Of a DNA stretch of 64,000 nucleotides, positions 6,401 through 9,400 are shown piece after piece (the stretch's first letter is position 1; each line of letters begins with the position of its first letter). A program made the translations under genes and the position numbers. The DNA comes from Otis tarda (taxonomy: Eukaryota; Chordata; Aves; Otidiformes; Otididae): positions 6,104,001 through 6,168,000 of the forward strand of contig CM048575.1 in NCBI GenBank assembly GCA_026413225.1, in the 5' to 3' direction. The notes beneath the pieces are model-generated. The model had not been told where the DNA came from. It saw only the letters and a list, made by a program, of their open reading frames with translations, and made no database searches.

Positions 6401-9400
6401 CGTTTGCAGAGCACGCATGCCTGCAGACGCCTTGTGAAGCGTGCAACGGAGGCAATGGTGCCCCTGGAGACATTTTAAGTGTGCACCCCCCATGCCCCCA
6501 CCTCGCTGCAGGGGCTGGGTGGGAGACAAGCCACAGCTGGTGTCTGGGCAGTGCCCGGCTGGGGACAGGTCCCCAGTGCTCCCCAGGGACTCTACCTTTG
6601 ATCTCCTTGGTGAAACGCACTCTCTGCGAGTCCGTCAGGGGCTTCGGCTGCTCGTCGATGTTCCGAATGTCCAGCACCTCGCACATGAACTCAATTACGG
6701 GCTGGGCCTTATAGAAGGCGGTGGCCGACACTGCGGGACAGACGCCACGATGCACCTCTGCTCTCTCCAGCAGACGGACCTGGCCCAAGAGCCAGCCAGA
6801 TCCAGCCTCACCACACACACCCAGCCCTACTGCTGCGGTTCCCCAGCATGAAAAACACATTTACCATCAATGTTGAGCATCATCTTCCACATGGCAGGCC
6901 TGACCGACTGGTGGAAACCGAACCAGACCTCCCTGCCGCCTCCCAGGGGGTGGTAATAACCTTCAGGGGGGGAGAAGAAGGAGCGGCCGACGGGAGTGTA
7001 CCTGCAAACCAGGGCAAGCCATGTCAAACAGCACATGCCAGTCCCACCAGCAGCGATCAAGAAGCACCTCCAGCCCCTCCAAGCCATCGCTCACGCCATT
7101 GGCTCTGTCACCCTGTTTGTTTCTTTTACAGGAGCATCCAGAGCGGTTGCAGCAAGCAGCGCGGCAGGCACAGCCACCTCCTCCCAAAGACCATCAAGGC
7201 CAGTCCCAGCCACAACAGCCTGCCAAGGGCAGCCGGTCCCTCCCTGTCACGCTCGGTGCTCGCGGCACAGCCTCTGCCGCCCACCCGCCGCGTCGCCCCT
7301 TGGCGCAGGTACCTCATGGAAGCCAGGTGCCTCATGGCAACATCCAGTGCCTGGACGGACTCCAAGGGGACAGGGATCTGCCCGCTGACCAGAGCCTCGT
7401 GCAGCATGCGCCAGCTCACGATGGCCATCCATTTGATCGAGACTTTAAATATCCTGTCCTTGCCTTCCCCCGGGATTGTCACCTCAAAGTCAACCTGGGT
7501 GCAGAAGGGAAGGGGATGTGATCACGGCATCCCCGCGGGCGCAAGGGCCGGAGGTCATTTTTACCCGGTCCTTCCCAGGCAGGAGGCAAGTCGTGCTGCC
7601 CGCACAGGGCTCTCCACCCCCTCTTACCCGCTCGTTTCCAATGGGCAAGGCCGTGACAGTGTAGATGTTCTTCTTCCCATCGTAGACTGGCTTTCGGTCG
7701 CCGAAGATCTGCGGTTTGAAGTGCTGCACCATGTACTCCACGACTTCCCTACGCAGGTCAGCGGGGCAAGAAAGGAGGAGAGAAGGGCGACGTTCGTTTT
7801 GCCAGTTTCTTTACAGCCCGACACCTTCTGCGACCTGCCCGGTCCCGAGCCTCCCTACCCAGGGCGCTTCTGAGGGCACCAGAGAGCAGAGCCGGTCCCC
7901 CAGGGGCAGGAGAGCCCCTGGACAAGCAGCCACGCGCTTTGCCCCGCAGCTTGGTGAACAGGCTTCAGCAGAAGGAATTTACGCGGCACGCAGGAACGCG
8001 CACCTGCTAGAGCTGGCTGCAAACCCGCTGCGCGCGCCAGGAGGGCGAGAGGGAGCAACTCGCTGCCCACTGCTGCCAGGAGCATCGGCAGCATCTGTTC
8101 CCTGGCTTTCGGGCTGCAGAGCTACCCAGGCTGCCAGGGCAGGCAGGGATGGACAGCAAATAGGATGTCAAAAAGAAAAAAAAACACAGAAAAGAAAAGC
8201 ACACGATGGCTGAAGGTCTTGGGCTTGCTATTTTTAAATACAGGATCGTTGCCAAGCTAGCACAGCAGCCGTGAAGAAGCAGGGGACTGTGCTGAGGTTT
8301 GGGACCTTCGAGGCGTCAAGGGCAGGAACCAGCGCCGCTGCACAAACATGGTTGGTGGGGTCCAGCCACCTGCGGACGCTGGGCAGCCCTGTGACCCCTG
8401 CCACAATGTCACCCCGATGGCTTCCAGTGGTGAAGACAGCGCGCCAGGCACTTACAGAGCCTCCACAAGGAAACTGGAAGTGGGGAACAAGTGCCAAAAC
8501 CTCTAATACTTGCCTTACCTGTTGACTCTGCGCGGACATTTGTCGGGTTTGATATCCACTTCATAATGATACACGTCAATCTTGGGAATGTCCACTTCAA
8601 AGTAGTTGGCCAAGAGCTTGATGGGCTTCCCAACGGTTCCTATCCCGGGCCGACGCGGCGCTTGAAATACCTGCTGCAAGGGTGGCAGGTATGCGCCTGC
8701 AGCTGCGGGGAGAGAAAACAGGTCAGGAGGGCTGGGAGAAACCCCGTGCGCAGACAGACAACGCGCAGACACAGTGCTCCCCTTCACCGCATCCCAAACC
8801 GGGACGTTTCCCACTGCTCATGCTCCTGACGGGAGGCGGCAGCGGCAGAATTTGGACCAGCCCAGCTGGAAGCAGCTTCCCTGAGCACCATCCGGCACGC
8901 GCCAGCTGAGCAGTCGAAGGGCAGTGCCAAGCTCCCCGCTCCGCTGTGCCGCCACCAGCTGTGTGGATGTCAAACCATCCACTGGCAGATAAATCATCTC
9001 CGCTTTGCCTTACGGAAAGGAACTCATCCGGGGCCACACGTGGCACCAGGATAGACCACGGAAGGACAAAGGACTCCTACCACCCATCCCAAGCTTGAGA
9101 GCACGCATGTCCTGGCATACACGACACCAGTAAATCAATTCCCTGAGCAGATGTGGGGACAGAAGGCCACGTTCAGCTCCTCTGACACCAAAGAACAGGT
9201 TGTACCTAACGTCCACATTAAAAGAGCTTTGAAAGTGCCTGCTACGCTGCCGCAAAGCTGCAATTCAACTTCTGTTTCACACAAGAAATGTTGCAATATG
9301 CAAACAACCAGAACAGAGGCAAAAAACTCTGCAGCCCTGGTTTCAGAAAGCAGGTAGAGCCTCGGATCCATGCCGAGAGCTCGCCACAGGTCTGCAGCAG

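What the first reader, a model, noticed from the sequence alone, without database searches (positions are those of the whole stretch)
6885..6976. 92-bp complete identity between AGO1 and AGO4 exon 5: candidate gene conversion
Bases 6885-6976 (AGO1) and 28900-28991 (AGO4) are identical, including all silent sites over about 30 codons. The rest of exon 5 and nearly every other paired exon differ at many third positions; exon 6, next door, is full of silent changes. The tract is GC-rich at third positions like AGO1, in an otherwise AT-leaning AGO4, so the likely direction is AGO1 to AGO4. The two genes lie in tandem, same orientation, 22 kb apart, which favours ectopic conversion.
Basis: partly seen in the sequence, partly recalled or inferred. 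Interest (0 to 1): 0.75.

Follow-up and report, generated by a model that had tools for sequence, protein, structure and literature searches.

The report
Exon-sized gene conversion between Argonaute genes
In what looks like a bird genome, neighbouring Argonaute genes that otherwise differ at most silent sites share short stretches of identical DNA inside single exons, the mark of one gene copying a piece of its neighbour, a known process seen here in genes of RNA silencing.

Summary
I compared all four AGO paralogs of the same genome exon by exon. Silent sites are saturated (per-exon pS 0.61-1.18) except in three cells: AGO1-AGO4 exon 5 (6/29; 0/20 inside the tract), AGO1-AGO3 exon 12 (1/41; a 177-bp perfect match, AGO3 lying outside the window) and AGO3-AGO4 exon 14 (4/22). 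Of 105 gene-pair x exon cells 3 are significant after Bonferroni, all among the 52 cells of linked genes, none among the 53 with unlinked AGO2. A published piece of human AGO1 exon 5 differs from the tract at 13 of 23 degenerate codons, so this sequence is not frozen across amniotes: selection on the sequence is an unlikely cause. Ectopic, exon-confined gene conversion is the best explanation. Its direction in exon 5 is open: GC content leans to AGO1 as donor, the human comparison does not. For exon 12 AGO1 looks like the donor. Exon 14 is older or partial and fails the run-based test. A known kind of event; three literature searches listed none for vertebrate AGO genes.

The parts
6885..6976 (-). 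92-bp tract in AGO1 exon 5, identical to AGO4
   Evidence: 0 of 20 synonymous sites differ
28900..28991 (-). 92-bp tract in AGO4 exon 5, identical to AGO1
6865..7001 (-). AGO1 exon 5 (137 bp)
   Evidence: splice sites and frame; PDB match; a paper places the human match in exon 5 of NM_012199
28880..29016 (-). AGO4 exon 5 (137 bp)
   Evidence: best PDB match is argonaute-4, all 45 residues identical
6884..6886 (-). AGO1 Lys codon at the tract edge; AGO4 has Asn at 28899-28901; an old paralog difference
1129..1305 (-). 177-bp tract in AGO1 exon 12 (exon 1131-1315, tract includes the donor GT), identical to AGO3 exon 12 at C24:6070456-6070632 outside the window
24851..24940 (-). AGO4 exon 14 segment with few silent changes against AGO3 (25 of 29 degenerate codons identical); probable older tract

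Best explanation
The tract is an ectopic (interlocus) gene-conversion tract. Shown: AGO1 and AGO4 are saturated at silent sites except in this stretch; the stretch lies inside one exon between introns without shared sequence; each of the three linked pairs of AGO3-AGO1-AGO4 has one such exon and unlinked AGO2 has none; the human AGO1 exon is different at most silent sites, so the sequence is not held fixed. Inferred: a break in an exon of one gene was repaired from the paralogous exon 22-35 kb away on the same small chromosome, the only usable homology, so the copied piece could not pass the exon. Inferred: such events persist where the encoded protein is the same in both genes, because copying a paralog-specific residue would be selected against; this fits tract edges at the K/N codon of exon 5 and near the N/G codon at the start of exon 12. 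Donor: AGO1 likely for exon 12, open for exon 5. With no silent change the two tracts are young against the genes; with a recalled avian neutral rate near 2e-9 per site per year, roughly under 40 and 20 million years.
For: Exact match. Per-exon pS for AGO1-AGO4: exon 5 6/29, the other 17 exons 0.63-0.90; exon 12 AGO1-AGO3 1/41; exon 14 AGO3-AGO4 4/22. Fisher tests on 105 cells: Bonferroni 1e-17, 2e-4, 1.7e-3, all in the 52 linked cells, 0 of 53 AGO2 cells. Longest runs reached in 0 of 20,000 shuffles for AGO1-AGO4 and AGO1-AGO3; ordinary for the other four pairs. Among the linked gene regions searched, exact matches of 22 bp or more: 177 and 92 bp, the other five 23-30 bp. Outgroup: human AGO1 exon 5, codons 13-38 as printed in PMC10886644 Table 1 (passage), against bird AGO1: 10 of 23 degenerate codons identical, 15 of 78 bases different, while bird AGO1 and AGO4 agree at 23 of 23. 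Exon 12 tract log-likelihood -55.9 under AGO1 codon usage, -66.3 under AGO3. Contig of 8.65 Mb; blackcap chromosomes under 20 Mb recombine almost three times as much as large ones (PMC10781513, passages).
Against: No AGO4 or AGO3 ortholog and no second bird could be read; one human AGO1 fragment is the only outgroup. The exons are 137 and 185 bp, and pairs not converted are about 80-84% identical there within the linked trio, below the about 200 bp of identical sequence that makes conversion efficient in yeast and rodents, though shorter and less similar copies convert at low rates (PMC3924818 section 2.1). AU topology tests on the tracts do not reject the other trees. Exon 14 fails the no-mismatch run test (global p 0.99) and has p 0.005-0.025 in the scan tests. 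Direction in exon 5: see above.
Confidence: 0.9

Rival explanations
1. Silent sites of this stretch are held by selection on the nucleotide sequence (splicing enhancer, RNA structure or other signal) in AGO1 and AGO4, with no DNA exchange.
For: The protein is nearly invariant here among the AGO chains of the PDB listing. A constraint limited to birds is not excluded by the human fragment.
Against: Human AGO1 differs from the tract at 13 of 23 degenerate codons. The same exon is saturated between AGO1 and AGO3 (20/29) and AGO1 and AGO2 (32/30 by the estimator). Exons 7 and 9, 100% alike in protein between AGO1 and AGO4, have pS 0.74 and 0.80. Three exons in three pairs would each need a pair-specific constraint.
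Confidence: 0.03
2. The copy was made through RNA: reverse-transcribed AGO mRNA, or RNA-templated repair, converted the neighbour.
For: Both main tracts are exonic. AGO4 lacks the intron between exons 14 and 15 that AGO1, AGO3 and AGO2 have, a sign that cDNA-like events can reach the family.
Against: Neither tract is followed by a converted stretch of the next exon. The protein search with AGO1 exons 5-14 scored 40 candidates; its 38 matches are exon-sized, in the C24 cluster or at AGO2 on C2, none a processed copy (a lower bound). The link to physical neighbourhood fits DNA-level exchange better.
Confidence: 0.04
3. Assembly or polishing artefact: an exon overwritten by reads of its paralog.
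For: AGO4 exon 2 carries a one-base frame disruption (31508-31511) that looks like a consensus error, so small errors may exist nearby.
Against: Flanking introns are unique, the exons sit in order, and overwriting 92 and 177 bp at two loci with about 20% differences by read mis-mapping is improbable (inference; no reads available).
Confidence: 0.03

Closest known systems
Nonallelic gene conversion among tandem sodium channel genes Nav1.1/1.2/1.3 of salamanders (PMC8476164, section 'Gene Conversion Events' read)
   Same: Linked paralogs; GENECONV tracts of 56 to over 600 bp, many within a single exon, several with zero to two differences
   Different: There some tracts carry amino-acid changes linked to toxin resistance; here the two main tracts are silent for the protein, and an unlinked fourth paralog serves as internal control
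Interlocus gene conversion between duplicated genes in general (PMC3924818, section 2.1 read, other passages seen)
   Same: Linked copies, tract lengths of tens to hundreds of bases
   Different: Experiments put efficient conversion at about 200 bp of identical sequence; here the homology is a 137- or 185-bp exon, about 80-84% alike in unconverted linked pairs, between introns without similarity

Membership tests
Interlocus (ectopic) gene conversion | Local paralog identity far above the paralogs' background | tested here: met
Interlocus (ectopic) gene conversion | Sharp boundaries, flanks at background divergence | tested here: met
   Right part of exon 5, exons 4 and 6 and both introns diverged; the left edge is blurred by 17 matching bases beyond the K/N codon
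Interlocus (ectopic) gene conversion | Excess among linked rather than unlinked paralogs | tested here: met
   3 of 52 linked cells, 0 of 53 unlinked; small numbers
Interlocus (ectopic) gene conversion | Sequences in the tract group by species, not by gene | tested here: met
   Bird AGO1 agrees with bird AGO4 at 23 of 23 degenerate codons and with human AGO1 at 10 of 23; one outgroup gene only, 78 of the 92 bases, no human AGO4
Interlocus (ectopic) gene conversion | Tract tree differs from the tree of the rest | tested here: inconclusive
   Best trees: rest (AGO3,AGO4); exon 5 tract (AGO1,AGO4); exon 12 tract (AGO1,AGO3); AU tests on the tracts reject none
Vertebrate AGO1/AGO4 genes | Paralog-specific residues and exon order | tested here: met
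   AGO4 exon 5 equals the argonaute-4 chain at 45 of 45 residues, AGO1 exon 5 differs only by K for N; exons 2-19 found in order (numbering recalled, exon 1 not examined)

The most novel reading that the evidence does not exclude
The AGO3-AGO1-AGO4 cluster is under continuing, exon-by-exon concerted evolution with AGO1 as its hub, working on exon islands under 200 bp and about 80% alike, and visible only in exons where the proteins are already the same because elsewhere selection removes it.
Probability: 0.35. Interest if true: 0.6.

Novelty: new member of a known kind. Interest (0 to 1): 0.5.

Why it matters
It shows that exon-sized islands between old, intron-diverged paralogs can still exchange sequence, in a gene family often used as an example of paralog divergence. 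Silent-site dating and gene trees of single AGO exons can mislead. The cluster, with AGO2 as an unlinked control, is a natural test of how short and how dissimilar a substrate conversion accepts on a small bird chromosome.

Tried and rejected
Chance was rejected by shuffling. Family-wide silent constraint was rejected by AGO3 and AGO2 in the same exon and by the human AGO1 fragment. An older AGO1-AGO4 tract in the first half of exon 12 (16 of 20 codons) was considered; exon 12 as a whole is 31 of 54, uncorrected p 0.12, so it is not claimed. With the exon 5 and exon 12 tracts removed from every pair, no further window stood out for AGO1-AGO4 or AGO1-AGO3 (this also removed exon 12 from the AGO1-AGO4 scan). 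In one search the AGO2-AGO3 list was filled by withheld letters, so exact matches of that pair were not seen; its codon test was ordinary. Codon usage for exon 14 (-29.4 AGO3, -31.3 AGO4 for the AGO3 copy) does not settle a direction. Outgroups: scans of genome contigs and viral contigs with exon 5 and exon 12 gave no vertebrate AGO. Sequence words in papers: one search showed none in the 5 listed of 2,441; one search found 4 papers, which I first set aside by title and, on checking, found to print human AGO1 (EIF2C1) exon 5 as a copy-number reference (passages), with recalled words of human AGO4, found 0 papers. Searches for AGO gene conversion (20 of 155, 10 of 109 and 10 of 12 papers listed) listed no report for vertebrate AGO genes; in PMC5569025 and PMC7765534 the word 'conversion' does not occur; (9 of 9 listed) shows nothing on AGO by title and abstract start. 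PMC3626786 (abstract and passages) gave no usable sequence.

Changed after checking: the human fragment raised my confidence in conversion from 0.86 to 0.90, lowered the selection rival, and removed the preference for AGO1 as donor in exon 5.

Full report
What was checked. The 92 bases at 6885-6976 and 28900-28991 are identical and the match stops at once on both sides; no other non-simple exact repeat in the window exceeds 33 bases. Both lie on the minus strand in exon 5 of two Argonaute genes, AGO1 (6865-7001) and AGO4 (28880-29016), each 137 bp with proper splice sites. The AGO4 exon equals the PDB argonaute-4 chain at 45 of 45 residues; argonaute-1 chains have K where it has N, as the window's AGO1 has. 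That K/N codon is the single mismatch at the left edge, followed by 17 identical bases and a GAT/GAC difference in the last codon.

Where it lies. The window is C24:6104001-6168000 of a 1.198-Gb assembly in 116 contigs; C24 is 8.65 Mb. A DNA search of the assembly with the tract gave three places: the two tracts at 100% and AGO3 at 82%. A protein search with AGO1 exons 5-14 scored 40 candidates and gave 38 exon-sized matches, in the AGO3-AGO1-AGO4 cluster or at AGO2 on C2. Both regions were fetched.

Four paralogs, exon by exon. Codons of exons 2-19 were anchored on AGO1. Exon 6 of AGO3 and part of exon 6 of AGO2 are withheld and left out; AGO4 exon 2 was compared in two pieces. Degenerate codons with the same amino acid that are identical: AGO1-AGO4 333 of 682, AGO1-AGO3 302 of 655, AGO3-AGO4 306 of 634, AGO1-AGO2 263 of 655, AGO2-AGO4 253 of 619, AGO2-AGO3 253 of 619. 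Three exons stand out: exon 5 for AGO1-AGO4 (33 of 39), exon 12 for AGO1-AGO3 (57 of 58), exon 14 for AGO3-AGO4 (25 of 29). The longest runs are 30 codons (AGO1-AGO4) and 59 (AGO1-AGO3), each reached in 0 of 20,000 shuffles; in the other four pairs they are 6-9 codons and ordinary.

Silent divergence (Nei-Gojobori) is 6/29, 1/41 and 4/22 in these three cells and 0.61-1.18 in all the others; inside the tracts 0 of 20.0 (exon 5) and 0 of 39.3 (exon 12) synonymous sites differ. Fisher tests of each exon against the rest of its pair, 105 cells: Bonferroni p 1e-17, 2e-4 and 1.7e-3 for the three, 1 for the next five listed. They lie among 52 linked cells; the 53 cells with AGO2 hold none. A GENECONV-like permutation on 476 columns gives 0 of 10,000 for exon 12 (run 38) and exon 5 (run 19). 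Exon 14, broken by four changes, is not significant there (global p 0.99) and has p 0.005-0.025 in scan tests; I treat it as probable and older.

The second tract. AGO1 and AGO3 share a 177-bp perfect match, window 1129-1305 and C24:6070456-6070632, from near the start of exon 12 to its end with the donor GT. In the linked gene regions searched the other exact matches of 22 bp or more are 23-30 bp. Solved argonaute-1 and argonaute-3 chains equal the bird exon 12 protein from the second residue on, so this exchange is protein-silent.

An outgroup from print. Four papers print human AGO1 (EIF2C1) exon 5 as a digital-PCR reference (passages). The longest piece (PMC10886644, Table 1, exon 5 to intron 5 of NM_012199.5) covers codons 13-45, thus 78 of the 92 tract bases. 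In codons 13-38 human AGO1 equals bird AGO1 at 10 of 23 degenerate codons, while bird AGO1 equals bird AGO4 at 23 of 23; for comparison human AGO1 equals bird AGO3 at 8 of 22 and bird AGO2 at 4 of 19. Beyond the tract, codons 39-45, human and bird AGO1 agree at 5 of 5. So the tract sequence has not been kept in AGO1 since the bird-mammal split.

Why not selection. Besides the human fragment: exons 7 and 9, 100% alike in protein between AGO1 and AGO4, have pS 0.74 and 0.80; AGO3 and AGO2 are saturated against AGO1 in exon 5. A shared constraint would have to pick a different exon in each linked pair. A bird-only constraint is not excluded.

Direction. GC3 outside the tracts is 0.743 in AGO1, 0.499 in AGO4, 0.482 in AGO3; the exon 5 tract has 0.74, the exon 12 tract 0.68. 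Codon usage favours AGO1 over AGO3 by 10.3 log units for exon 12 and AGO1 over AGO4 by 1.0 for exon 5. Against AGO1 as donor in exon 5: its tract is no nearer to human AGO1 than the paralogs are to each other, while the few codons beyond the tract agree fully; but silent sites between bird and human may be near saturation in any case. I leave it open.

Trees. Outside the tracts the best tree joins AGO3 with AGO4; on the exon 5 tract AGO1 with AGO4, on the exon 12 tract AGO1 with AGO3. The tracts are too short for the AU test to reject the alternatives.

Mechanism. Best reading: DNA-level ectopic conversion within the cluster, limited to exons because the introns share no sequence. Exons 5 and 12 are 137 and 185 bp and about 80-84% alike in unconverted linked pairs, less than the about 200 identical bases for efficient conversion in yeast and rodents; the same review notes low-rate conversion with shorter or less similar copies (PMC3924818 section 2.1). 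High recombination on small bird chromosomes may help (PMC10781513 passages). Survival of tracts only where the proteins agree is my inference.

What is known. Exon-sized conversion between tandem paralogs is on record for the Nav1.1-1.3 genes of salamanders, tracts from 56 to over 600 bp (PMC8476164, that section read). For vertebrate AGO genes three searches listed no such report; the library holds open-licence papers only and the lists were capped. I rate it a new member of a known kind.

Noticed in passing
window 31508-31511 (minus strand): AGO4 exon 2 has a run of four C after which the frame is shifted and a stop follows; AGO4 exons 3-13 are open with proper splice sites. Consensus error, a rare allele or a young lesion cannot be told apart here.
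   Followed up: partly
window 24572-24941; compare C24:6068064-6068841 (AGO3) and C24:6101967-6104515 (AGO1): AGO4 lacks the intron that separates exons 14 and 15 in AGO1, AGO3 and AGO2.
   Followed up: no
window 1129-1305: 177-bp perfect identity with AGO3 exon 12, stronger than the reported tract; treated as part of the finding.
   Followed up: yes
window about 61206-61540: GGGATG/GGGGAT-type simple array.
   Followed up: no
L047:3001-3117: A bacterial MAG contig encodes a 37-residue stretch 45% like AGO exon 12; a prokaryotic or contaminating Argonaute-like gene.
   Followed up: no
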